This document shows, piece by piece, positions 13,690-61,200 of a stretch of 64,000 nt of DNA. Position 1 is the stretch's first letter. Each line of letters begins with the position of its first letter. A program made the translations under genes and the position numbers. The stretch spans positions 30,928,263 through 30,992,262 of the forward strand of contig NC_041003.1 of assembly GCF_004193775.1 (NCBI RefSeq). The letters run 5' to 3'. This DNA comes from Glycine soja (lineage: Eukaryota > Streptophyta > Magnoliopsida > Fabales > Fabaceae). Below the pieces are notes generated by a model that saw nothing but the letters and a program-made list of their open reading frames with translations, was not told the DNA's origin and ran no database searches.

Positions 13690-14024
13690 TGTTGAAGATA
13701 TACTTTTGTAACTGCATAATATTTTATTTTTCAGTTTTTAAAATAGGATTTAGTAAATAAGTTGGTTTCCTATATTTTAGGAATAAGTCAGTTTTAATGG
13801 ATTAACCTAGTCAATAAGTGGTTCCTATCTTTAAGGAGCAAGTTAGTTTTAATATTCTGTTTTGTTTTGTTAATATCTTGTTATCTAATTAGTTTATCGT
13901 TTGTTATTTATTGTATCGCTGTTGAGAACAATTTGAATTAGAATAGAATAATTCTATTTCCTCCGCATACGTATTGTCTCTCTTCTCTCCTCTGTTTTTT
14001 ATAATTTCCTCCAAAAAACCAACA
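13690..14024 (+). repeat. 5' LTR of the copia element (335 bp)
   Basis: Starts TGTTGAAGATATAC and ends AAACCAACA. It is colinear with 15907-16236. It contains a TTGTTTTG expansion near 13860 absent from the other copy. Confidence 0.9.
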
Positions 14025-14025
14025 A

Positions 14026-14038
14026 TTGATATTAGAGC
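14026..14038 (+). other. Primer-binding site, initiator-tRNA-Met type, diverged
   Basis: TTGATATTAGAGC follows the 5' LTR by one base. The copia consensus in plants is TGGTATCAGAGC, so the site is recognisable with about three changes. Confidence 0.65.
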
Positions 14039-14061
14039 CTTATTCTTACGGGACCTCTACC

Positions 14062-14949
14062 ATGGAAGGTGAAGCAAGTTTTTCCCACATAACTCTTCCA
14101 ATCTTTGATGGAGAGAATTATGACCTTTGGGAAGTGAAAATGCAATCCTACATGGAGTCTTTGGATTTGTGGGATGTTGTGAAAGAGGATTATGAAATAT
14201 ATTCGCTGCCTGAAAATCTCACCATGGCCCAAATTAAAAATCACAAGGAAAGAAAGATGAAGAAGGCAAAGGCGAGGTCATGTTTGTTTACTGGTGTTTC
14301 ACAAATGATATTCATCAGAATTATGACTCTTAAATCACCCAAAGCAATTTGGGATTATCTGAAAGAGGAATACGCTGGAGATGATAGAATACGAAGCATG
14401 CAAGTGCTGAATTTAAGGAGGGAATTTGAGCTTCAAAGTATGCAAGAGTCAGAGACAATCAAAGAATACTCAAACAAATTGTTGAGTATTGCCAACAAGA
14501 TAAAGTTGTTGGGAAGTGATTTTGCTGATTCGAGAATTATAGAGAAAATTTTGGTAACGGTGCCGGAGAGGTATGAAGCATCTATAGCTTCATTGGAGAA
14601 CACAAAGGATCTGTCGAAAATCACATTGGCAGAAGTGCTACATGCCCTGCAAGCTCAAGAGCAGCGAAGGTTGATGAGGCAAGATCGTGTTATCGAAGGT
14701 GCTTTGCCCGCCAAACATCATGAAGTTGATGAAAGTAAAAAGATTTTTTTCAAGAAAAATCAGCCAGCAAGCAGCGAAAATAATGCAAGCAATCAAAACA
14801 AAGGCAAGGATAAAAAGAAAAATTATCCACCTTATCAGCATTGCGGAAAATTGGGTCACCCACCATACAAATGTTGGAAACAGCCAGACGCAAAGTGCAA
14901 CAAGTGCAATCAGCTTGGACACGAAGCTATAATATGCCCAAGTTGTTGA
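14062..14949 (+). CDS. Copia Gag (UBN2-type) with zinc knuckles, stops early
   Basis: The start is chosen at ATG 14062 (MEGEASFSHITLPIFDGENY), which fits the usual copia gag opening; codons before it are PBS. The gag core runs to about residue 200 (W-E-V-K-M-Q and W-D-Y-L-K-E-E-Y patterns). The C-terminus has two zinc knuckles. The first, QHCGKLGHPPYKC, has lost its leading Cys (Tyr present); the second, CNKCNQLGHEAIIC, is complete CX2CX4HX4C. TGA at 14947 ends this piece, but the same frame continues into the protease at 14992. Gag would coat the RNA in particles; here it belongs to a defective element. Confidence 0.8.
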   Translation: MEGEASFSHITLPIFDGENYDLWEVKMQSYMESLDLWDVVKEDYEIYSLPENLTMAQIKNHKERKMKKAKARSCLFTGVSQMIFIRIMTLKSPKAIWDYLKEEYAGDDRIRSMQVLNLRREFELQSMQESETIKEYSNKLLSIANKIKLLGSDFADSRIIEKILVTVPERYEASIASLENTKDLSKITLAEVLHALQAQEQRRLMRQDRVIEGALPAKHHEVDESKKIFFKKNQPASSENNASNQNKGKDKKKNYPPYQHCGKLGHPPYKCWKQPDAKCNKCNQLGHEAIICPSC

Positions 14950-15912
14950 GCAGAGGAAGAAAATTATATTTTTGCTGCAACATGTTATTCGATGAGGAGT
15001 AGTTCTAAATGTTGGTTGATTGATAGTGGTTGTACGAACCACATGACATATGATAAGACTCTATTCAAGGATTTGAAGCCAACTAATGTCTCAAAGGTCA
15101 GAATTGGGAATGGTGGCTATATTCCAATAAAAGGAAAAGGAACTGTTGCAATTTCAACGTGTTCAGGTACCAAATTAATATCAGATGTTCTTTATGTACC
15201 TAACATTGACCAAAACTTGCTAAGTGTAGGTCAATTGATTAAAAAGGGATTTAAAGTGTCCTTTGAATATCAACATTGCTTTATCTATGACATTGCTGGC
15301 CAGGAAGTTCTAAGGGTTAAAATGAAAGGTAAAAGCTTTTCATTTGATCCAGCAGAGGAGGAGCATACAACCTATTTCACTCAAGTCACACCCATGGAAC
15401 TCTGGCACAAGAGACTTGGTCATTGTCATCTTGAAAGAATGCTAAACATGAAAAAAAGGAAATATGCAAAAGAAAATTTGAAGAAGTTTCAAATGGAGGA
15501 ATGCAAATCTGTTAACACACCAATGAATCAAAAGGAGAAGTTCAACAAGGAACAAGGTGTTGATAACATTGATGAAGGATATTATGGGAGCTTGATTGGA
15601 TGTCTAATGTATCTCACTACAACAAGGCCAAACATTCTATTTTCTCAAAAGAACAAAACTGGAATTTTTGTTAACAATCAAGTAGTCATTGCTATTACAA
15701 ACAATCTCGTGTGTCATGGGAAGACTAAATATTTCAACATCAAGTTCTATTATTTGATAAAGATGCAGCAAAGTGAAGAAGTGAACTTAATTTACTGCAA
15801 GTTTAAAGATCAACTGGCTGACATGTTTATAAAGTCACTACCTATCAACAAACTTGAACTCTTAAGGCAAAGAATTGGAGTTTGCAGTTCTAAAAGCAAG
15901 GAGGAGTGTTGA
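14950..15912 (+). pseudogene. Copia pol remnant: protease, pre-integrase, then RT/RNase H tail fused in frame
   Basis: In the gag frame, CWLIDSGCTNHM is the copia protease active site (D-S-G intact). MELWHKRLGHCH at about 15393 is the GAG-pre-integrase motif. At about 15455-15475 the sequence jumps without loss of frame to ECKSVNTPMNQKEKF and GSLIGCLMYLTTTRP, the C-terminal end of RT and the start of RNase H. RNase H tail motifs follow (FKDQLADMFIKSLP). Integrase core and RT catalytic box are missing. The stop TGA lies in the first bases of the 3' LTR. Confidence 0.85.
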
Positions 15913-16236
15913 AGATATACTTTTGTAACTGCATAATATTTTATTTTTCAGTTTTTAAAATAGGATTTAGTAAATAAATTGGTTTCCTATATTTTAGGAG
16001 TAAGTCAGTTTTAATGTATTAACCTAGTCAATAAGTGATTCCTATATTTAAGGAGTAAGTTAGTTTTAATATTCTGTTTTGTTAATATCTTGTTATCTAA
16101 TTAATTTATCTTTTGTTATTTATTGTATCGCTGTCGAGAACAATTTGAATTAGAATAGAATAATTTTATTTATTCTGCATACGTATTGTCTCTCTTCTCT
16201 CCTCTGTTTTTTATAATTTCCACCACAAAACCAACA
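15907..16236 (+). repeat. 3' LTR of the copia element (330 bp)
   Basis: Starts TGTTGAAGATATAC directly after the purine tract and ends AAACCAACA. It is nearly identical to the 5' LTR. Confidence 0.9.
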
Positions 16237-17693: not shown

Positions 17694-17748
17694 TGAGGAT
17701 TTGAGTGCTGCTAGGTGCACCTAGCAGTTTTGCTGGTGCACCCAGTAA

Positions 17749-18165
17749 TTACTGTGAAAAGGTCATAATGTCCTTCATTAATTTTAAAAAAAAAACGAAA
17801 CCTCTCTCTCTCCCTCCCCGCGTTGGCGCTTCTGCTTCTTCTTCTTTCGGATCAGCTCTCTTCTTCTTCTTCCTGCTTCTTCTTCCTGGTTCTTCCTGCG
17901 CCTTCTTCTTCATTGCTTGCGTGTCTTCTTTGTGCCTCTTCTTCTTCTTCGTTGAGGAGGTTGCCGAGGTAGCTTGCGGTGGTGCTACGAGGAAGCTTCC
18001 GTGAAGAGCAACGGTCGTTGAGGAGGTTTGCGCGTCCACCGTCGAGGTCAGCACCGTGAACCTTACCTTTTTTTGCTCCAGTGTTGCCGGCGATGGCGGA
18101 AAGCGCTGTCGGAAATCGCTGGGAGCTTTACGGATCAAGTGATCCGTAAACATTTTCCTGATCAA
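17749..18165 (-). other. Low-complexity K/E-rich open frame near the left end of the Mutator-like element
   Basis: A 138-codon minus-strand frame rich in Lys/Glu/Arg because the plus strand is TTC/CTT-rich. No domain is recognised. A similar lysine-rich stretch (50950-51055) sits at the matching place in the second element, so it may be a conserved part of the family's subterminal region. I do not claim a protein. Confidence 0.3.
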
Positions 18166-18301
18166 CTTGATCCGGAAGATGCTTACGGATCAAGTTGATC
18201 TGTAAACTACTTGTAAGTAGTTTACAGATCACCTAATCCGTAAGCATCTTCCGGATCAAGTTGATCCAGAAAATGTTTACGGATCACTTGATCCGTAAGG
18301 T
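18126..18301. repeat. Near-perfect 176-bp palindrome (two 87-bp arms, 2-bp loop)
   Basis: The left arm 18126-18212 and right arm 18215-18301 are reverse complements with only a handful of mismatches, meeting at GTAAACTACTT-GT-AAGTAGTTTAC. Each arm itself contains several GGATCAACTTGATCC-type small palindromes. It would extrude as a long hairpin in DNA or RNA. Confidence 0.88.
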
Positions 18302-18372
18302 ATGTTGAGTAGTTTACGGATCACTTGATCCGTAAAATACTCAACATACTTTACGAATCACCTGATCCGTAA
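18129..18372. repeat. Array of about eight GGATCA..TGATCC palindromes, left end of the element
   Basis: Units of form CGGATCAA(C/G)TTGATCCG, or shorter GGATCACTTGATCC, occur about every 30 bp. The same unit appears three times near the right end (22608-22675) and about seven times in the relic at 50526-50720. Subterminal repeats in DNA transposons often bind transposase; that role here is inference. Confidence 0.8.
18300..18349. repeat. Second palindrome, 50 bp (24-bp arms)
   Basis: GTATGTTGAGTAG... meets its reverse complement ...ATACTCAACATAC about a CT centre at 18324-18325, with one mismatch. It begins where the long palindrome ends. Confidence 0.88.
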
Positions 18373-18607
18373 AACTCAATTTGATTTTAATTCAAAAATT
18401 GCCAAATATTATTTGATACCTCTGAATGTATGCTAAATATTTGATAAATAGTGTCATGAATATCTACTGTTTCATACAAATTGCCATGAATGTATGCTAA
18501 TGATTGATATCCCTATAAGCTAACTTCCATGTGCTTCCATATAAGCCAACTTCCATGTACTTCCTTTAACTAAGTTATGACCAATATGATTGATGCAAAT
18601 ACTTGTG

Positions 18608-18795
18608 AGTAACAATCTACAGCTTCTTGTACCTAAATTCATACCTTAGATAACAATCTGCAGCTTCTTGTACCTAAATTAGAGGAGAACAACAATGAAT
18701 AACAATGTGCAGCTTCTTGTACCTAAATCCAAATTAGAGGAGAACAACAATGAATAACAATCTGCAGCTTCTTGTACCTAAATTCATACCTTAGA
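18608..18795. repeat. Tandem repeats CAGCTTCTTGTACCTAAAT
   Basis: AACAATCTGCAGCTTCTTG and the following ACCTAAAT occur four times at irregular 45-60 bp spacing. Between copies 3 and 4 a longer unit (GAGGAGAACAACAATGAAT) is also repeated. The rest of 18380-19815 is non-coding; it also repeats CTTTAACTAAGTTATGACC and, at 19560-19650, a TTGATTTCTTCTTTCTTTGG unit. Confidence 0.7.
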
Positions 18796-19815
18796 TAGAT
18801 GCAAATACTTGCAATTAATGGATTAAACTAGGAAATAGGAATTTGACATGATAGAACTAGGAATTTGGCATGATGGTAGTTTGCTTAGAACCTCTGAGCC
18901 TGTATGTGAAGAAATGCATTTGGAATCATGAACCAACTATCCCAAAACCTGAAGTTATTTAGAACTCTAAGCCACATGGTCGGCTATAATATAATATCAC
19001 AAATGATGAACCAACTATTCCATACAAATGGTTTTATATCAAACTTTAGAGCAATAAGCATTTTGGTCATCAATTAAGCAGCCATTCTATCACCTAATGT
19101 TAATACTAATTCAATTCCCAAAACCCTATCATAATCATCAATTAAATTTCAAAAACTGAAAACATAAAAGTAGAGAAACAAAACACAAATTCTCAATTAA
19201 TAAAAGGGACTTTAAATTTAATCACAACCTCGAGATCCTTGAATTGACTTTGGGCTACACTAAACATTATTTTATCACAACTTGCATGAGATATTAGAAT
19301 GAATCATAAAAACACTTGGTAAACTACTTAATAGTTAATATTTCAATTAATATTGCTTGGGGCTCATAGGAATGCACTTCACTGTCAATATAGGTTGAAC
19401 CAAATGAGTAGTTGTTTCCATTTCTTCCTTTAACTAAGTTATGACCATAGAGGATAGAGTATCCTTAGAAAAGAAATAGCTCATAAAGGATAGAGTATCC
19501 TTTAACTAAGTTATGACCATGTACTTCCTTTATAGGTTGAACCAAATGAATAAGCATAAGGTTGATTTCTTCTTTCTTTGGCTTTGTTCATCTAATATCA
19601 AGAAGATTGATTTCTTCTTTCTTTGGCTTTGTTTATCTAATATCAATAATATTAGGATCCATAATCAATTTCCATTCAATCATATAGTGTACTGAATAAA
19701 AACTAACCCGATAAAAGCATAAAGCGCGACTTTCAGTCAATGAAATTTGCGTTAGACCAATGAAATTTGAGTGAATGAAATGGGTGATTGAATTTGCGTC
19801 ACTCATTTGCAGATC

Positions 19816-21864
19816 ATGGTTAGGACTAGAGGATTAGGTCATGCCTTAGGTGTGGGCAGAGGAGATTGTGATGATTCTGATGATGCTCCGTAGCATCGAC
19901 GGCCTACTGCATCCGCACGGAGACAGCGAGTCACTATGACTGCGGATCACGTCGATGAGTCAGTCATCCCTGCGCCAGATGTTCAGGATGACCCGATGGA
20001 GGCACCAGCTGCTGTGGAGGACATTCCTGCGGACGCAGGCGTAGAGGCGGCTGAGGATCGGCCTCAGGGATTTCCGGGTGGTCCGAGCGACCCATCTGTG
20101 TTGACAGCATATGCGGATCGCGTTGCTTGCAGCGTATGGACGGGAGAGGTATTTATACTATTTATTTTTAGTTACTTGTAAATTATACTTTATGATTGAA
20201 ATTAGTTTTCCTTTAAATGATTATTTTAACGAATTTTGCGTTCCTTTATACTTCAATTCAGGAGTGTCCTGAATTGAAGCTATCCTCTTATGGGAGGAAG
20301 GCCCACAGTTTAGGCAGGCCTGCCCCTGCCATTGAGGGACTTATTGCTGGTACAGGACTAAGTCCTCTGATCGCGTGTTCGGTAGACACCAACGATCAGG
20401 GACTTTTGTCCGCGTTTGTGGAGCGGTGGCACCGGGAGACTTCTAGTTTCCATCTCCCGGTAGGAGAGCTCACCATCACATTGGACGACATCTCCTCTCT
20501 TCTCCATCTTCCCGTTATTGGCGACTTACACGCATTTGAGCCCTTGCACGTGGACAATGCGGTTCAGATGCTGGTGGACTTGTTGATGGTCTCTCCAGAG
20601 TCTGCTAGGGCTGAGACAGTCCAGTGTCGCGGACCGTACGTACGCCTGCAATGGGTACGTGATATATATCAGCGCCGATGCCAGGCAGGTCATTGGACAG
20701 TTGCGGGTCGCGCATATCTTCTTCACCTACTGGGTTGCACTCTGTTTGCTAACAAGAGTGCAACCAATGTCCATGTTGTCTACTTGGAGGCCCTTCGTGA
20801 CCTCAGTATGACAAAGAGGTACGCCTGGGGAGTGGCTGCTTTGGTTCATATGTACGACCAGCTGAACGATGCATCTATGAGCCACAGTCGACAGCTTGGC
20901 GGTTACATCACACTGCTGCAGGTAACAAATATGTTTTTCATTCATTCAGGCTAAACAATGTTCAACTTTAAATTTTGTTACACTTTCATTATTAATGTTT
21001 ATAATTTGAATGTTACATCTGTAGTGCTGGATTTACGAGCACTTTCCCTTGGTCGCGGAGTCCACCGCTGATCAGGACTACGACGAGGCTTCTCCGCGTG
21101 CGTGCAGGTGGATTGCGACGAAGAAGACCGTGAAGAGCATTCGCACGCCGTCGTATAGGGAGCGCCTGGACCGACTCCGGATTCCGGATGGCTATTGGAT
21201 CCCTTATGGGAAGCATCGGGAGGTCCAGGACTTCCACGTCAGATCATGCTATTCCGGTCTCTTGCGCTGGGGGCCTGTTGCTGTTTATTACCGATCGGAG
21301 AGGTTCGTGCGGCAGTTTGGCTACACGCAGACCATTCCTGATCCTCCTGTCGATTCATGGGTCTCGTATGATGATATACACAATAGGTGGATGCACTACG
21401 AGGATCATATCGTACCTGCAGGTGAGGTGTGCGTTGTGCCAGGGGCGTGTTCCAGTGATTACATCAATTGGTTCTTCCGCATCTCCCATCCTTTCATGAC
21501 ACCAGGCCACGCATTAGATCCTCTGCCTCATGGTCATGCCCCGCAGCCTCGAGTCGTCCCTCAGGAGCATCGTCGACATCTACGGAGGAGCCCAGACATG
21601 CAGTGGTAAGTAATACTAATAATTTACGTCATTTACCTCAATATTTGCATAATAATTTGTGTAATTAGTTTGTTTTGTATGTAACAGGAAGTTTGTGATG
21701 ACATTGCTGAGAGGTTGAAGCGCCATCTGAGTCTAGGGGTGGTCATGCTAGGGTCATCGACACATGAGGTGATCGAAGAATGCCTCAGATTGGCCAGGAG
21801 TGTGACACAGGACCATCTAGTATACGTTAGGTGTAGACGCAGGCGACGCACTGATCAGGCGTAG
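19816..21864 (+). pseudogene. Plant mobile domain (PMD/MAIN-like) gene, four exons, broken by a stop and a frameshift
   Basis: Exons inferred from GT-AG sites and frame are 19816-20148, 20262-20921, 21025-21605 and 21688-21864; all junctions are phase 0. The start MVRTRGLGHALG and the body (LSPLIACSVDTNDQG, FVERWHRETSSFHLPVGE, LLHLLGCTLFANKS, LGGYITLLQ-CWIYEHFP, SWVSYDDIHNRWMHYE) match the aminotransferase-like plant mobile domain of MAIN-like proteins. TAG at 19891 replaces a codon between PRO-25 and HIS (CAG to TAG is the simplest change); the next in-frame ATG is 19936. Near 21560-21570 a net frameshift moves the frame from PQEHRRH to ASSTSTEEPRHAV, which is the only frame that splices to exon 4 (EVCDDIAERL). 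Host PMD proteins act in nuclear gene and TE silencing; this copy rides a transposon and is probably dead, or starts at 19936 and lacks its native C-terminus. Confidence 0.85.
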
Positions 21865-22600
21865 TTTATGTACATATTTTATATTGATATTCCTTGTATA
21901 TACAGATATTGTACATGAACTCATTTCATGCGTATTGTTGGTTTTATTTATTTTCATTACTAATGTTAGTTTTATTTATTTTCATTGATTGTGTATTCCA
22001 TTTGTGTCTATATACACGCGTGTTATTAAAATGGTCTAGTTAACTTAGTTTACCAATTAATAAAAAATAATTTAAAATATAAATTTAAATATAATTGAAA
22101 TAAAGAAGTTGAAAAGGGTGTAAAAAAAATTAAACAAAAAATGGATATCATTCGTTATCTAAGATCTTATATAACGTACTAATATTTTTAAATTCTCTTA
22201 TAATTACTATTTTCCCACTTATACTAATGATCATGTAAAAAAATGTATTATAAAGTAGTTAGTATTTTCATTTTTTATCTAATACTAATTATTATTTTTA
22301 TATTCTTTATAATATTAATAATGATATGATTAATTCTTTATAATATTATCTTTTATGTATTTATTGATTTTTATTAATATGTATAAAATAACCTTAAACA
22401 ATAATTATAATGGGACTGAGTAAGTATTTTAATATCATCTTCTAAACCAATTTATTCTAAAAAAATATATTAAAAAATTAATTATTTATAATAAATCAAT
22501 ATTTATAAATATATTATAATTAATAAAATAAAAAATAAATTTAATTATATTATAAATAAAATATGTTGTATTTTAAAGTATATTATAATTATTTTTCCTC
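21865..22600. other. AT-rich 3' part of the Mutator-like element, no gene
   Basis: Only A/T-rich low-complexity DNA between the PMD stop and the right-hand palindromes. Confidence 0.6.
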
Positions 22601-22602
22601 TT

Positions 22603-22680
22603 TCGGATCAACTTGATCCGTAACTTCCGGATCAAGTTGATCTGTTAGTCTCTTACGGATCAAGTTGATCCGTAGGAGGA
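22603..22680. repeat. Right-end palindrome cluster of the Mutator-like element
   Basis: Three GGATCAA(C/G)TTGATC palindromes in about 75 bp, 60 bp from the right inverted repeat. They mirror the left-end array. Confidence 0.8.
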
Positions 22681-23370
22681 AAACTAAGCAAGGACAATTT
22701 TGTCATTTTTTAAGAATATTGGGTGCACCTAGCAACACTCTGAGGATTTTCATATGATTTTCCAAACCATTATGATTGAAGGTGGTATAGGAACATGGCT
22801 CGTGTTTTAGATGAGTCAAATAAGTTTAATTCATGAAAAAAATGTTTTTCTTTTCAAGGTCACTAATTGGCCTGCAAAAGTTCACAAATAAACGGTCTGG
22901 TCCGTGAATTCAAATATTAATTTGAAAAAAAAAGTGAAAAATGTATAGAATTAAAAGAAAAAATTCTGACTTCATTTTTTAAACTAAAATCTATTACACT
23001 AAAATATACCAAAATTTTAAACATAATAAAATAACAATAACAACCTAAATTAAAAATCAAAATCTTAACATAACAAATTAATAATACTTATACATTGTAA
23101 CTTCACCAACAATAAATGTATTCCAATCCAAGTATACTCTACAAAGAATCATTCAAGAAAAATAAAAAGTATGACAAAAAAAATACTCCAATGGGAAAAA
23201 AATACTCAACGGAATCATTTTGTTGTGTCAAAATTCAGACAACGACAAAATCATGATTTCATTGAGTATTTTGAAAATAAACAATAAAATAAAAAACATA
23301 AACCTATGGTTGGATGGGTCTAACCAGAGAGAAGAGAATAGGAGAAGAGGAAATAGGAAGGGAGGAAGGA

Positions 23371-47925: not shown

Positions 47926-48183
47926 GTGTACACATATGGTCTCATGGCATACATTGCTTATACCTTACCAACATAAGCAAATGAAGGGCATCGATGTTGT
48001 ATAACTTGTTTTTGAAGATTAGATGGCACTAACTGCATGATTGAGTCATTGTTTTGCCTTTACCTGAAACTCCATAAATTTTACATGATCGAAGTACTTA
48101 TAATTACCACCATCATAGTATTATAGTTTTTGGTGGTGGTTATATTGTATTTTGAATTAACTTTTTTTTTATACTCTAATCAG

Positions 48184-48979
48184 GAGTTTGAAGACACACT
48201 TGGTTACATAGCTAAGATTTTCTCCCAAGCTGAACCTTATGGCATATGTAGGATTTTCCCTCCACCTTGTTGGGTACCACCTCGCCCTCTTCAGGAGAAA
48301 GATTTATGGGAAAATGCAAAATTTCCCACTCGTATTCAGCAAATTTACATGCTTCAGAACAGGAAACCCACGAGAAAGAAAATTAGGGGAAGGAAACAAA
48401 AACGTAGAAAGAAGTCAAAGATGGGCATGGGTACGAGAACTCCCAAATCAGGTTCTGAAGCTAATGTTGCTTCTGAGCCTGAAGAGAAGTTTGGATTCCA
48501 ATTAGGGTCAGACTTCACACTTAAAGACTTTTGGCAATATGCTAATGTTTTTAAAGATTGCTACTTTGGATTGAATGATGCCAATGAATATGAAAAGTTA
48601 GTGATAGTAGTCACCAACAGAGATGGAAACCCTCTGTGGAGGAAATTGAAGGTGAATATTGGTGAATAATAGAGCAACCAATTGATGAGGTTGAGGTACT
48701 AATTGCAGTTCATTGATAATATCGTTAGTCTTACTGTCACATAATTATGCAAAAAAAATTATATATTATTCTTTTATTTTTGAAGGTGTATTATGGAGTT
48801 GACTTGGAAACTGGATCACTTGGAAGTGGTTTTCCTAAGACATCATCCTTAACTAAGAATGAGTCAGATAGATATGCCCTGTCTAGTTGGAATTTGAATA
48901 ACTTCTCGCGACTGCCAGGTTCTACCTTATGTTTTGAAGGAAGTCATATCTCAGGAGTTGTAGCAAGAAAAAAAGTTTA
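48184..48979 (+). pseudogene. JmjN/JmjC histone demethylase (JMJ14/18-type, KDM5-like) fragment
   Basis: Exon A follows an AG at 48183 and reads EFEDTLGYIAKI and AEPYGICRIFPPPCWVPP, the second half of the JmjN domain, then KDLWENAKFPTRIQQI, a basic stretch and FGFQLGSDFTLKDFWQYA, YFGLNDANEYEK. At about 48595 one base is lost; the continuing frame (SDSSHQQRWKPSVEEIEGEYW) then meets TGA at 48663. Exon A would end at 48695. Exon B (48786 onward) reads VYYGVDLETGSLGSGFP and FEGSHISGVV, the entry to the JmjC domain, and then runs into unrelated sequence and a stop. The iron-binding HxE/H residues are absent. The parent removes histone H3K4 methylation; this copy cannot. Confidence 0.85.
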
Positions 48980-53543: not shown

Positions 53544-56500
53544 ATGATGGTGAGTTGGAATGTGAGGGGCATTAACAAGGTAGCTAGGAATAAAGAGGTT
53601 AGCTCCTACCTCCATTCTTTTAATGTTCCTATAGTGGCTTTACTAGAGACTAGAGTTAAAATGCATAATGCTAAGAAAGTAAGGAATAAAATAGGTGGCA
53701 GTTGGAATTATATGGACAATTATGATAGACATGAGAATGGGAGAATCTGGTTGTTATGGGACCACAGGGAAGTGAATCTGAAACTTATTCAAATTGATGA
53801 GCAATTCATTCATGTGGAAATATACTCCTTGGATCAATCTCTTAAGTTTGTAGCTTTGGTGATTTATGCTTTTAATCAATTGGATAGAAGGAAGGAGCTG
53901 TGGAACAAAATTGAGGACATTGGTAGAAATCTGAATGGGCCTTGGATTGTGATTGGTGATTTTAATAATGTTCTGAATAGTCAGGACATAATTGGTGGTA
54001 ATAATGTTGTTGAGACTGAAGTTAGGGACCTTAAAACCATGATGTCAAATATGGGATTGTTTGAAGCTGATATGAAAGGGAACCATTACACTTGGTCGAA
54101 TAAGCATGTTATTGATGTGATTTACTCTCGGATTGACAGAGTTATTGGTAATGTTGATTGGTTTCAGAAGTATCAAGATGCCTCTTATGAAGTTCTGGAT
54201 CCTAATATTTCAGACCACTCTCCTATCAAAATTGGCCTGCAGATACAAAAGCCTAGAAAAGTTTACTTGTTTAGATTTATCAACTGTATCAGTAAGGATC
54301 CATCTTTTATGCAGTTGGTTGCTAGTAGCTGGCATGTGGAATCTAGAGGGACTTCTATGGAAAAACTTTGGTACAAGCTTAAAAGGCTCCAAAGTGTTTT
54401 AAGACCTCTGTCTAAACAGTTCACCAATATGCAAAATCAAATCGAGCAAGTTAGGCAAGAGTTACATCAGGTCCAAAATTTACTGCAACATAATCCTTTT
54501 GATAATTTGCTGTTGAAGGAAGTGAAGCAGAAGAATGAGAAAATTATTCAGCTGGCCCAAATGGAAGAAGACATTCTGATGCAAAAATCTAAAGTCAATT
54601 GGCTTAAGCTTGGTGACAGCAATAATGCTTATTTCCATGCAACTGTGAAGGAAAAAAATAAGAATAAAGGCATCTATACTTTGACAGATTTAGATGGAAA
54701 TTTGTTGTGCACACAAGAGAGTATTGAAAAAGAGATTGTGAGCTTTTACAAAAAGTTGGTAGGTACTAAAGAAACTGATTAGAAAGGAATTGATATCCCT
54801 GTTTTGAGAGATGGTAAAACTTTGTCTAGAGATCTTGCTCAGCAGCTCATTAGACCTATTGACCTAAAAGAAATTTGGAATGCTTTAGTGAATATTGGTG
54901 AGACCAAAGCTCCTGGTTTAGATGGATTCACTTCACATTTTTTCAAAGCAACCTGGCCCATTGTTAAATATGATGTGCAAAATGCTATTCTGGAATTTTT
55001 TAATACTAGTAAGTTGTACAAAACTGTAAATTGCTCTATTGTTTCTCTGATCCCTAAGTCCCCGAAGGCAAAAACCATCAAAGACATGAGACCAATATCC
55101 TGTTGTAGTACAATATATAAGGTGATCTCGAAGATATTGACTAGTAGACTGAGTGCAGTGATAAACAGTGTGGTGGAAGACACTCAATCAGCATTTATTC
55201 CTGGTAGGAATATCCAGGACAATATTCTTCTCGCTCAGGAGCTGGTGAGAGGATATGGTAGGAAAAATGTGTCTCCTAGATGCTTGGTGCAAATGGATAT
55301 TCAAAAGGCTTATGATATGGTTGAGTGGCAAGCATTGCAACATATTATGGTGGAGTTGGGATTTCCTCAGAAGTTTATAGGCTGGGTGATGGCTTGTGTT
55401 AATTCTGTTTCCTACAGATTCTCCCTTAATGGTGCTCCAACGGGTATTTTAAAAGCTCAAAGAGGGTTGAGGCAAGGTGATCCAATTTCTCCTCTCCTCT
55501 TTGTTCTTGTTATGGAATACCTCCATAGAGTGCTTCATGGCCTTGGTTCAAGCCATAACTTCAATTACCACCCTAAGTGTGAGAAGTTGAAAATTATTAA
55601 TTTGTGTTTTACGGACGATATTCTGATTTTCTTAAGAGGGGATCGTGGATCAATGAAGCTGATGATGAACAAAATGAAAGAGTTTTCAGAAGCAATAGGT
55701 CTTCAGATAAGTCATTCCAAGAGTAAAATCTATTTTGGAGGAGTGGATGAGGATACTCAAGTTAGATTGCAGCAGGAATCTGGTTTTTTGGTTGGTAAAA
55801 TGCCTTTTAAGTACCTTGGTGTTCCTCTTGACAACAAAAAGCTCACTATTAGTAATTGTCAACCTTTGATCGATAAGATGTTGAAAAGAGTTCAACATTG
55901 GAGCTCCAAACTACTATCATATGCTAGCAGAGTGCAATTAATTAACAGCGTGTTATTTGCCATCGCAAATTATTGGCTCCAAATCTTTCCTTTTCCTAAG
56001 AAAGTGGTGAAGCATATTGAAGGGATTTGTAGAAGTTTTCTTTGGACAGGTAAGAGCAGTAACAATAGGAAAGCCCCTATTTCTTGGGATCATATTTATG
56101 ATCCAAAAAATGCAGGTGGACTGAATCTGATTGGTCTTGAGGATTGGAATAAAGCTACAATTGGTAAACTTCTTTGGAATATTTGGGAGAAAAAGGATAA
56201 GTTGTGGATTCATTGGATACACATTTATTATATGAAAAATAATAATGCAGATAACTTCTAGTCGGGGCAAAATTGTTCTTGGACGTTGAAAGCTATTTTC
56301 AAGTATAAAAATTTACTTACGCAATCTGCGGTTTGGAAGGAGATGTGTGATGCTGGAAAGTATAATACGAGGAAAATGTACCAAGTGATTAGAGGTATTA
56401 AACCGCAGGTGGAATGGAGAAAAATTATTATAGGTAACCATGCTAGACCTCATGCAATTTTCACTCTGTGGTTGGCTTGTAATAAGCGGTTGTTAACAAA

Positions 56501-56891
56501 AGAGAGAATGATCAGGTTTGGCATGCCCACTGATGGTTTGTGTGTTTTCTGTAAGATGGCTGAAACTTGCCAACATCTGTTTTTTAGTTGCTGTGAAATC
56601 AAACTAGTTTGGGAGAAGATTCTGCGTTGGATTGGGTATGTTCACACTCCTACTATGTGGGATGATGAGCTTGGTTGGATTGTGGAAAATACTAAAGGCA
56701 AAGGTTGTAAAAGAAGTTTGATGAAGCTGGCTGTGGCTAATACTGTTTATAGGGTTTGGTTTGTGAGAAATCGGATCATATTTCAAGGTGGTAGGAAAGA
56801 AGAGCTTCATTGGGAGACCATAAAAAATGTGATTCTTAGAAGAGTTGAAAACAATAGGAAACTTATGATGTATTGCAATAGGAATCTCTAG
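53544..56891 (+). pseudogene. LINE ORF2: endonuclease and reverse transcriptase; two TAG stops
   Basis: This frame spans 1115 codons. Endonuclease motifs: SWNVRG (residues 4-9), LLETRV (about 32), VIGDFNN (about 136), SRIDRVIGN, and SDHSPI (about 223). RT motifs: AFIPGRNIQDNI, QMDIQKAYDMVEW, GLRQGDPISPLLF and the catalytic box read as FTDD (about 689-692). The C-terminus has the zf-RVT region (LWLACNKRLLTKERM, CVFCKMAETCQHLFFSC). TAG at 54779 lies in the linker and TAG at 56259 lies between RT and zf-RVT (TGG to TAG is the simplest origin). Otherwise it is intact. The enzyme nicks target DNA and primes reverse transcription there. Confidence 0.92.
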
Positions 56892-58268: not shown

Positions 58269-61200
58269 ATGCAAACTCCCGATGACGTTCGCAACCTTCC
58301 CATCGACATCACTTTCTCTCGTCTGGGAGGTCCCAATTTCCTTTCTTTCTCTTTCTCACCAATTTCTTTCGTCTTTTTTTTTTTCTCGGTTTTTGAATTT
58401 TAATTCGAATTTGCGACCTTTGCAGAATGGTTGGTGGATCGCAAGCGAGTGCCCGCGGATTGGCGCAAGCGCGTGGCGGCGATCAGGGCCCGAATTTCCA
58501 AGGAGTTCCCCTCTCTCCCTAAGGACTCTGACCCCTTTTTCCAAACCCTAGACCCCGAAGGTTTAAAATTTATGTGTATTTTAAATTTAAGTAAATGTTT
58601 GTTATTTGTTCTGTGTTGACCAAAATGTGATAATGTTATTTGTTTACTGATTATGAATTGTGAATATATATTTTGGTTTGTTAAATTAGATAATTTTAAT
58701 GATCAATAAAGTGGCAATGCTATTTTCAGGGATTGGTTATTTGGAGGCTAAACAGATATATGATGATCTCTTAAAGTCTACCTCGGAGAGCAGGAACATA
58801 TTTGGTCGCTTATCAGGTGCTGCGGTAAGATATGCTCTTCAAAATCAGTAAAGCAAAATGTGCACTATAGTCATTCATACTATGCATACTATTATTACTG
58901 AATGCATGGATCAACTGGTACAGGGTTGTTCTAGTTTAACAAGTGATCTCAAGTTTGAGACCTGAGTATGCATATCTTTTGGAAGGAGAATTTTGCACCT
59001 ATATTAGTTTTAAAGGATACTCTTGAAAATATGTAAAACAAAGGAAAAAGTTATACACAATTTGATAGGTACTTTTGGTGTTGTTCACCAAGTAGAATTG
59101 GAGTTTTGCCTCGTTAATATTTGTTGACTTTTAATGTAAACCTTTGTTTTGCAGATTACCCAGGTAAAACTTTGATTCTGATTTGAGAACAATACTAAAA
59201 CTGCATAAGGAACTGTATATAAGCTTTTTTCTTGAAACAAAATGTGCACTATAATCATTCATAGTCATCTTATAGTATATATACCATTGACCTTTTACTG
59301 TTAACTGTGGCTATTATTATTTGGGTAGGGTGCGTGGGAAGCAATTGTGCGGTCCTTTGAGAAGGATCATGTTTTCCTTGGTGAGGCTGCGCAGATTCTG
59401 ATTCAAAATGTGAGCTATGAAATGTGAGCATTGTGATCTTATGGTTTTCATCAAGAGAAACATGTGGTGTTCTATTTGTTTAAAGGCTTTTGTTATTTTG
59501 TTGCTGAGTATTTGTTTCCATTGTGAAGCCCTTATCAGAGGAAACAGGTGCAGAAGATTCAGCAGCATCTGTTAGAGCTAGATCGCAAGGAGGCTGATAT
59601 AAAAAGAAGTGCTGCGCTTTCGGCCACCAAATATGCTGAAGCTTGTCAGGAGCTTGGCTTACAGGTTGGCATTTTTGGGGTGTTTTTGTTGAGTAGGAAA
59701 CAATTTTTGTAGCTGTGTTATAACTTATAAGGGATCTTGTGATGAATAATATCCTTGAGAAAGCAAGTTAGCGTTGTCTGCTCTATGTAGCTGACCTACC
59801 TAATGGGATATGACTTTGTTGTTGTGTCATGTAGAAAACAATTTATTTTTCTGTTACAAGTGGGTTGTGATTTTATTGTTTTGCAGGGGAAAAATGTCAG
59901 AGTAGAACTCTTGGAGACAGCACTATTACTTCCGAGCACGTTTAGCAAAATTCTGGATGTTGTAAACAGTGACAACTTGTCAAGGGCAATTGAGTATTAT
60001 TCCAATTTTGTCAGGGATGCTCACATTGAAAAGGATGTAAGGCAAAACTAGAATTCTTATTCATTGTATAATTCTCATTAATGCTTGATGCATTGTTCTT
60101 GCAACTCTTTTGCATGACCTTCCTGCAAGGAAGGGATTAAGATTGACATGGTTCAGTATATATTTTATTTAAGATGAAAATCATTACTACAGAGATCTTT
60201 GGGAGACGTACTACAAAACTTGAAGAATATGCGCGAAAATCCCCCATCTTTAAATGTTGCTGTTGACTCTGAGATTATTAATGATGTTAATGTTCATTCA
60301 AGCAAAAATGGATTGGATCCTGCAATAGCCAATACTGAAATTGCTGTGCCTGACATTGACTGGGATATTTCTGTGGATAGTTCACAACTTGATTGGGACA
60401 TTGGAACTGTAGAAGAAACAGAGGATAATGGTAATGGATTGGGTCCATATGAAATCATTAATGCCTCTGACATCGGATCTGATCTAACAATATCAAACCA
60501 AGAAATAGGATCACCTGCAGATATATCTTGGGATATTAGTGTGGATACTCCTCAGGTTGATGTCATTGATGATGATAATGCCCCAACTGTAGTGCTGGAG
60601 AATCAGACTTCTCTTCCTGATTCCCTATCTCAATTGACAGGAAACAAGGAAGAAAGGAGCCAGCTTTTAGATACGGAGTACAGAAATAAAATTCTTGATG
60701 ATCTGTATGAGGTATATAATATTTATGCCAATTTACTGTCTTTACTCATTAAGTTTTTGATTTTGATAATGCAATTCCAAATTTCATATTACATCCCTAG
60801 ATAGGGAAAGAAACATAGCTCTAGCAAATTTTGTTTACATCTTATGTTGTATTACTTACTAGTAAACAGTTATCTCCCCTGTATGAATTTATTATTTTGA
60901 TGTCATTATTATTTTCAGATTAAACCTTAAATTTTGTAATGATTTTATATGCCATCAGATGAAATCCTTTTTAAATCAACGGTTGGCTGAATTGAGGAAT
61001 GAGGAAACTTTGTCCCTGCAACATCAAGTCCAGGCAGTTGCACCCTTTGTACTACAGCAGTATGCTGCTGATGCCATTGAAACAATGCAAAGTGATATTT
61101 CTTTGGCAATTTCATTGCTGACAAATAGGAAGACAAGGGATCTGATTATGATTCTCAACTCCAAAAGGTACTGCTTGATATTTTATACCTAAAATTTCAT

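What the first reader, a model, noticed from the sequence alone, without database searches (positions are those of the whole stretch)
18126..18349. Fractal palindromes inside a Mutator-like element: 176-bp hairpin built from 15-bp palindromes
Two 87-bp arms meet at a 2-bp loop with few mismatches, followed at once by a 50-bp palindrome. Each arm consists of GGATCAACTTGATCC-type units that are themselves palindromes. Long inverted repeats are unstable, so keeping one suggests recent origin or use, for example as transposase-binding array, replication or recombination product, or hairpin RNA source. The palindromes are seen; function is inference.
Basis: partly seen in the sequence, partly recalled or inferred. 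Interest (0 to 1): 0.78.

Follow-up and report, generated by a model that had tools for sequence, protein, structure and literature searches.

The report
Palindromic site arrays in Mutator-like transposons
The long hairpin is one expanded array of a short mirror-image DNA site that a plant Mutator-like transposon family carries just inside its ends, most likely as docking sites for a protein that controls or moves the element.

Summary
The hairpin is real: arms 18126-18212/18215-18301 agree in 81 of 88 aligned columns; best inverted-repeat score 60 against at most 13 in 100 shuffles. It lies in a 5,038-bp Mutator-like element (17703-22740; shared end GAGTGYTGCTAGGTGCACC; 9-bp duplication TGAGGATTT) with a plant-mobile-domain gene. 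The constant feature is not the hairpin but the dyad TTACGGATCA-N2/3-TGATCCGTAA: 854 exact sites, reversed-pattern control 0. All 20 sampled exact 23-mer sites lie beside the family end, shuffles 0 of 20; 21 of 45 listed exact ends have an exact 23-mer within 800 bp inside, 0 outside. Transposase-bearing relatives and miniature copies carry it too. Arrays range from 1 to 12 units. Half-sites change 0.40 times as fast as spacers (95% 0.21-0.93; three of nine groups point the other way). Best reading: binding sites for a dimeric, probably element-encoded protein; the hairpin follows from mirror-image units multiplying, mostly inverted. It works like VANC-target arrays or CACTA subterminal repeats, but with palindromic units. 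Binding itself is untested.

The parts
17694..17702 (.). target-site duplication, left, TGAGGATTT
   Evidence: identical 9 bp outside both ends
17703..17721 (+). left terminal inverted repeat core GAGTGCTGCTAGGTGCACC
   Evidence: 0 mismatches; 253 forward + 263 reverse exact copies of GAGTGYTGCTAGGTGCACC in the genome, reversed control 0
18132..18368 (.). left array of eight palindromic units (18132-18145, 18159-18173, 18187-18201, 18226-18239, 18253-18267, 18281-18294, 18318-18331, 18355-18368)
   Evidence: 7 at <=1 mismatch; 8 at <=2
18126..18301 (.). 176-bp inverted repeat: a trimer of units followed by its inverted copy
   Evidence: 81 of 88 columns; trimer 2 fits trimer 1 better inverted (0.929) than direct (0.800)
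18276..18373 (.). second, overlapping 98-bp inverted repeat
   Evidence: 48-nt arms, 90%
20217..20954 (+). open frame with plant mobile domain, first part (PF10536)
   Evidence: E 3e-37
21049..21609 (+). open frame with plant mobile domain, second part (PF10536)
   Evidence: E 3.7e-10
22605..22671 (.). right array of three units (22605-22619, 22629-22643, 22657-22671)
   Evidence: unit limits read
22722..22740 (-). right terminal inverted repeat core GAGTGTTGCTAGGTGCACC
   Evidence: 0 mismatches
22741..22749 (.). target-site duplication, right, TGAGGATTT

Best explanation
The 22/23-bp dyad TTACGGATCA-N2/3-TGATCCGTAA is a cis-acting site of one Mutator-like family, kept just inside its ends. 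Shown: its location, its presence in full-length, transposase-bearing and miniature members, the variation in array size, and on average slower change of half-sites than spacers. Inferred: a dimeric DNA-binding protein binds the dyads and so marks family members for transposition, transcription or relief from silencing. The likeliest binder is the family's transposase, whose N-terminus matches DNA-binding domains (AFT over its Pfam cut-off, FAR1 below it). Inferred too: arrays grow and shrink by exchange or template switching between mirror-image units. Each unit is nearly its own mirror image and trimers are mostly copied inverted, so a large array is bound to be a long hairpin. The hairpin is then a consequence of the array, not the feature selected.
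For: 854 exact sites, reversed control 0. 20 of 20 sampled exact 23-mer sites have the family end (<=4 mismatches of 19) in the same 1,501 bp, shuffles 0 of 20. 21 of 45 listed exact ends on C1 and part of C2 have an exact 23-mer within 800 bp inside, 0 of 45 outside. Of 11 paired elements with PMD sequence, 11 have an array near one end and 10 have at least one unit near the other. An element with the same ends, a transposase frame and no PMD match has one unit near each end (L051). A 12,980-bp element with both genes has 3 and 10 units. Ten of ten short copies examined hold units. 15 of 33 listed PF10551 hits lie within 14 kb of an inward-facing exact end; 2,000 random placements gave mean 0.26, maximum 3. 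Non-CpG change: half-site 42/1145, flanking TTAC 20/693, spacer 82/878, centre 46/243. Of three single-unit copies (L029, L039, L041) two units are intact and one has one change. AFT match 23.1 and 26.3 bits, cut-off 21.6.
Against: No binding data. Three of nine groups point the other way (window/L009 6/162 half-site against 4/140 spacer; L033/L034/L037/L045 8/120 against 3/136; the tiny L029/L039/L041 group 1/28 against 0/12), one is level (L038/L047), and the bootstrap interval reaches 0.93. The window's own pair is thus among the dissenters. FAR1 match 24.1 bits, below its cut-off of 28.1. 24 of 45 exact ends have no exact 23-mer within 800 bp inside (only the strict form was counted). L025 has no unit near its second end; L046 keeps half a unit and L048 none convincing. 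Arms are more alike within copies (0.914) than between (0.871), as pairing selection or template switching would also give.
Confidence: 0.58

Rival explanations
1. The array has no function: mirror-image units multiply by replication template switching, which also mends arm mismatches, and they ride along with the transposon.
For: Successive trimers fit better inverted in 16, direct in 6, tied in 2 of 24 comparisons; within-copy arms 0.914 against 0.871 between copies. Matching spacer changes on both arms in L018 and L026, by eye. Array size varies from 1 to 12 units. Three of nine groups show no slower half-sites. Template switching is reported to create hairpins and possibly maintain them (PMC8794818, passages).
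Against: Pooled, half-sites and TTAC change more slowly than spacers, which lie in the same hairpin. Single units persist where there is no array, and near both ends of a transposase element.
Confidence: 0.22
2. The array is a hairpin-RNA source: transcripts from the element's end cross it and feed small RNAs that silence the family, as proposed for Mu killer and MuDR.
For: Predicted RNA fold of 18126-18377 is -171.5 kcal/mol. The array lies between the left end and the PMD frames. Mu killer is proposed to act through a hairpin RNA (PMC3440606, abstract start in search listing). 21 of 68 half-site differences are at CpG, as expected of methylated DNA.
Against: Copies with 1-3 units cannot form a long hairpin. 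Centre bases, which mostly also lie in the long duplex, change fastest, 46/243. Rfam matches to miRNA precursors are all below gathering score; in the six alignments shown I see shared shape rather than sequence. No small-RNA reads were available.
Confidence: 0.12
3. The dyad is the site of a host transcription factor, captured by the family to drive its genes.
For: Units lie between the ends and the coding frames at both sides of the two-gene element.
Against: All 20 sampled exact 23-mer sites were in this family; only the long exact form was sampled, so shorter host sites would be missed.
Confidence: 0.08

Closest known systems
VANDAL21 / VANC21 target arrays, Arabidopsis Mutator-like elements (PMC5735166 and PMC10398659, passages)
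   Same: Short motif at high density in noncoding parts of one family, in introns and upstream of genes; arrays gain and lose repeats between copies; the high density is reported as unique to that family.
   Different: The VANC21 motif YAGTATTAY is arrayed in one orientation; here each unit is a 22/23-bp dyad and trimers are mostly inverted. No VANC-type protein was searched for; the second gene seen here is PMD.
Subterminal repeats of soybean CACTA elements Tgm1 and Tgmt* (PMC2613891, passages)
   Same: Asymmetric arrays of stem-loop-forming motifs near both ends, proposed as sites of an element-encoded protein.
   Different: CACTA ends, 3-bp duplication and other motifs (TTGGCAG, AATCTTACAG); here 9-bp duplications and a MULE transposase.
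MuDR of maize (PMC9168764 and PMC3310237, passages; 9-bp duplications of Mu from the abstract start of PMC2774946 in the listing)
   Same: 9-bp duplications and two convergent genes, as in the 12,980-bp relative.
   Different: MURA binds a ~32-bp motif within the long terminal repeats; here the shared end is short and the units lie inside it. The second gene is PMD, not mudrB.
PMD-carrying MULEs (PMC5418596, passages)
   Same: PMD genes captured by MULEs are on record, with a suggested anti-silencing use.
   Different: There PMD-C occurs fused to the transposase in grasses and Amborella; here PMD is a separate convergent gene. No tree was made, so the PMD clade is unknown.
Galileo long terminal repeats with multiple THAP sites (PMC3688188, abstract)
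   Same: Repeated transposase sites inside foldback-like ends.
   Different: P-superfamily element of Drosophila; binding was measured there, not here.

Membership tests
Mutator-like element (MULE) | target-site duplication of about 9 bp | tested here: met
   10 of the 11 element pairs taken up (window and ten fetched loci) have an exact 9- or 10-bp duplication; L026 could not be tested because its end lies 6 bases from the edge of the fetched stretch; two poor pairs (L021, and a second pairing in L016) gave none. 12,980-bp element TTGGTGTAT; 10 of 10 short copies exact, one of them 8 bp; L051 first element exact, L051 transposase element only 8 bp with one mismatch
Mutator-like element (MULE) | terminal inverted repeats shared by the family | tested here: met
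   exact core at both window ends; 516 exact cores in the genome
Mutator-like element (MULE) | MULE transposase (PF10551) in relatives with the same ends | tested here: met
   L051 E 4.6e-25, L050 E 1.8e-25; no transposase match in the window element itself by blastn or tblastx with the L051 frame
VANDAL/VANC system | motif arrays in noncoding DNA that vary in size between copies | tested here: met
VANDAL/VANC system | motifs in one orientation | tested here: not met
   units are dyads; trimers mostly inverted
VANDAL/VANC system | VANC protein that binds the motif and removes methylation | not tested
   no VANC search was run; Pfam scans of 11 chosen frames gave PMD, MULE, ZSWIM1-3_RNaseH-like, FAR1 and AFT, and three frames without a match
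CACTA (Tgm) | CACTA ends and 3-bp duplication | tested here: not met
   ends GAGTGYTGCTAGG, 9-bp duplications
microRNA or hairpin-RNA locus | small RNAs from the hairpin | not testable with these tools
   no reads; Rfam matches all below gathering score

The most novel reading that the evidence does not exclude
A second, separately evolved sequence-specific anti-silencing or activation system of Mutator-like elements: an element-encoded protein, possibly the PMD product acting in trans, recognises palindromic dyads as a dimer, and arrays before both genes define which copies it frees from silencing. Because the sites are palindromic, the same array is also a potential hairpin-RNA source, so activation and silencing would compete on one sequence.
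Probability: 0.17. Interest if true: 0.75.

Novelty: new variant of a known kind. Interest (0 to 1): 0.5.

Why it matters
It offers a large natural series (854 exact dyads; arrays of 1 to 12 units in full-length, two-gene and miniature copies) for asking how short sites in transposon ends are recognised, multiplied and kept. If an element protein binds them, the VANC idea of family-specific site arrays would extend to dyad sites and to a PMD-carrying family; an anti-silencing use of PMD captured by MULEs has been suggested (PMC5418596, passages).

Tried and rejected
Unique recent hairpin: rejected, many copies. Simple tandem duplication of a palindrome: not sufficient, since 16 of 24 successive trimers fit better inverted, 6 direct, 2 tied. 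miRNA gene: Rfam matches all below gathering score. Literature on the unit: three letter searches gave six papers in all, none on plants or transposons by title; topic searches were made, and none of the listed titles or passages read describes this array. Repbase and soybean transposon catalogues were not searched, so the family may already have a name there. A sample chosen by end pairs could not be fetched as planned.

Limits of the counts: one search scored 40 of 690 candidates, one search scored 40 of 107, one search scored 150 of 3,089. The 20 loci were one search hits that were NOT among the hairpin copies listed, so they lean towards short arrays; at least one further such hit (C11:16352) and the weakest hits were left out. 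The script counts a unit at <=2 mismatches in 20 of 20; by eye 18 hold a whole unit in the expected place (some with a mismatch), L046 half of one, L048 none, and four of the script's counts (L032, L035, L036, L043) include one spurious unit; my notebook entry says 19 and is superseded. and one search left out L032, L035, L036 and L046, and L048 was outside their range; copies with no equal partner also drop out. The 20 sites are the first clusters in the list, passing over four sites in or near copies already seen; they are not a random draw.

Changes made on checking: duplication counts, the number of dissenting groups (three, not two), largest array (12 in one run), AFT match over its cut-off; confidence in the best explanation lowered from 0.60 to 0.58 and the no-function rival raised from 0.20 to 0.22 for the third dissenting group.

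Full report
OBSERVATION. The hairpin exists as described and is far beyond chance: 81 of 88 aligned columns, score 60 against at most 13 in 100 shuffles. It runs past the given end as a second inverted repeat, 18276-18373. Eight units at <=2 mismatches occupy 18132-18368.

ELEMENT. Matching ends at 17703 and 22740 and the 9-bp duplication TGAGGATTT define a 5,038-bp element. Two frames match the plant mobile domain; a stretch I took for a first exon (19810-20166) has a stop in the frame tried. No transposase match is found in this copy. The genome has 1.01 Gb in 1,119 contigs; soybean or a close relative is my inference from its size and some twenty large contigs, and no tool named it.

FAMILY. 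Twenty other copies found by the hairpin hold arrays of 5 to 10 units at <=1 mismatch. Since those were chosen by the hairpin, I looked at 20 loci found by neighbouring sequence (window 18420-19300) and absent from the hairpin list: they hold 1 to 4 units, in most between the same bordering sequences. By eye 18 of the 20 hold a whole unit, L046 half of one, L048 none. That sample leans towards short arrays. The long hairpin is therefore a variable state, and the unit is the more constant feature.

GENOME-WIDE. The exact 23-mer with AASTT at its centre occurs 549 times and the form with 2 or 3 free centre bases 854 times; the reversed control is 0 for both. All of 20 sampled 23-mer sites lie with the family end, shuffles 0 of 20. 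Nine miniature copies of 285-484 bp and one of 890 bp have exact 8- or 9-bp duplications, and all ten hold units. 21 of 45 listed exact ends have an exact 23-mer within 800 bp inside and none outside.

PARTNER. In L051 a 4,141-bp element with the same ends carries a 421-aa transposase frame (PF10551), one unit near each end and no PMD match; its duplication is weak, 8 bp with one mismatch. A neighbouring element in L051 carries PMD. A 12,980-bp element (L050 with L027) holds transposase and PMD in convergent orientation, with 3 and 10 units and an exact 9-bp duplication. L049 has transposase sequence 97% identical to that of L051, a 5-unit array, and no PMD match in its 8 kb. On C1 to C4 (part), 15 of 33 listed transposase hits face an exact end within 14 kb, random mean 0.26. 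Aligned PMD codons of 17 copies give pooled pN/pS 0.33 (median of 136 pairs 0.33, range 0.16-0.79), although 14 of the 17 have stops in the aligned frame. So the gene was probably under constraint before most copies decayed; exon limits were set by eye and no tree was used.

WHAT IS CONSERVED. In nine groups of equally built arrays, outside CpG, half-sites differ at 42/1145, TTAC flanks 20/693, spacers 82/878, centres 46/243. The half-to-spacer ratio is 0.40, 95% 0.21-0.93, and at or above 1 in 1.85% of bootstraps over groups. Three groups point the other way, among them window/L009. A pairwise version gave 0.041 against 0.108; downstream flank 0.099, upstream 0.236, the last inflated by ungapped comparison. 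Half-sites and spacers lie in the same hairpin, so pairing alone does not predict the difference. Units had to match within 2 mismatches to be found, which favours half-sites; at these rates I judge the effect small, but it is not zero.

HOW THE HAIRPIN ARISES. Arrays are built of trimers; successive trimers fit better inverted in 16, direct in 6 and tied in 2 comparisons. Within-copy arms are more alike (0.914, 17 copies) than between copies (0.871), yet in 15 of 17 copies another copy's first trimer is as close or closer than the copy's own partner, so arm matching is mostly not recent in each copy.

MECHANISM. Taken together: a dyad site for a dimeric protein, kept near both ends and multiplied by copying between mirror-image units. 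Which protein binds is unknown. The transposase N-terminus matches AFT above and FAR1 below the Pfam cut-off. Units in a transposase element without PMD and in miniature copies speak against a role restricted to PMD-carrying copies, but not against PMD acting on them in trans.

COMPARISON. The closest working analogue is the VANC target arrays; soybean CACTA subterminal repeats are a second. The element is a MULE by tested features. It is not filed as VANDAL: its motifs are not in one orientation and no VANC protein was sought.

Noticed in passing
14026-15909: Copia-type retrotransposon remains: gag (PF14223) and Pol_BBD/gag_pre-integrase matches in two frames, with similar sequence at about 13690-14010 and 15910-16235 that looks like a pair of long terminal repeats by eye.
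   Followed up: partly
53544-56891: Three successive frames with endonuclease/exonuclease/phosphatase, RVT_1 and zf-RVT matches: a LINE-like element.
   Followed up: partly
5-1693: 562-aa frame matching Transposase_32, a putative plant transposon protein.
   Followed up: no
48130-48669 and 60199-60804: Frames matching JmjN and CDK5RAP3: possible exons of host genes.
   Followed up: no
L063 648-1000; L060 658-1456: Largest arrays seen: 12 units in one run in L063; 13 units at <=1 mismatch in L060, split by a gap of about 300 bp.
   Followed up: no
L050 4289-4954; L049 878-1411: Frames of 222 and 178 aa with matching letters by eye in two transposase-bearing elements and no Pfam match: a third product or a transposase exon.
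   Followed up: no
L052-L071 arrays: Unit start-to-start distances are often 28 or 38 bp, about one helical turn apart (read, not counted).
   Followed up: no
L014 and window arrays: The centre base of the 15-bp unit is G in L014 and C in the window within similar spacers, as if the centre had flipped.
   Followed up: no
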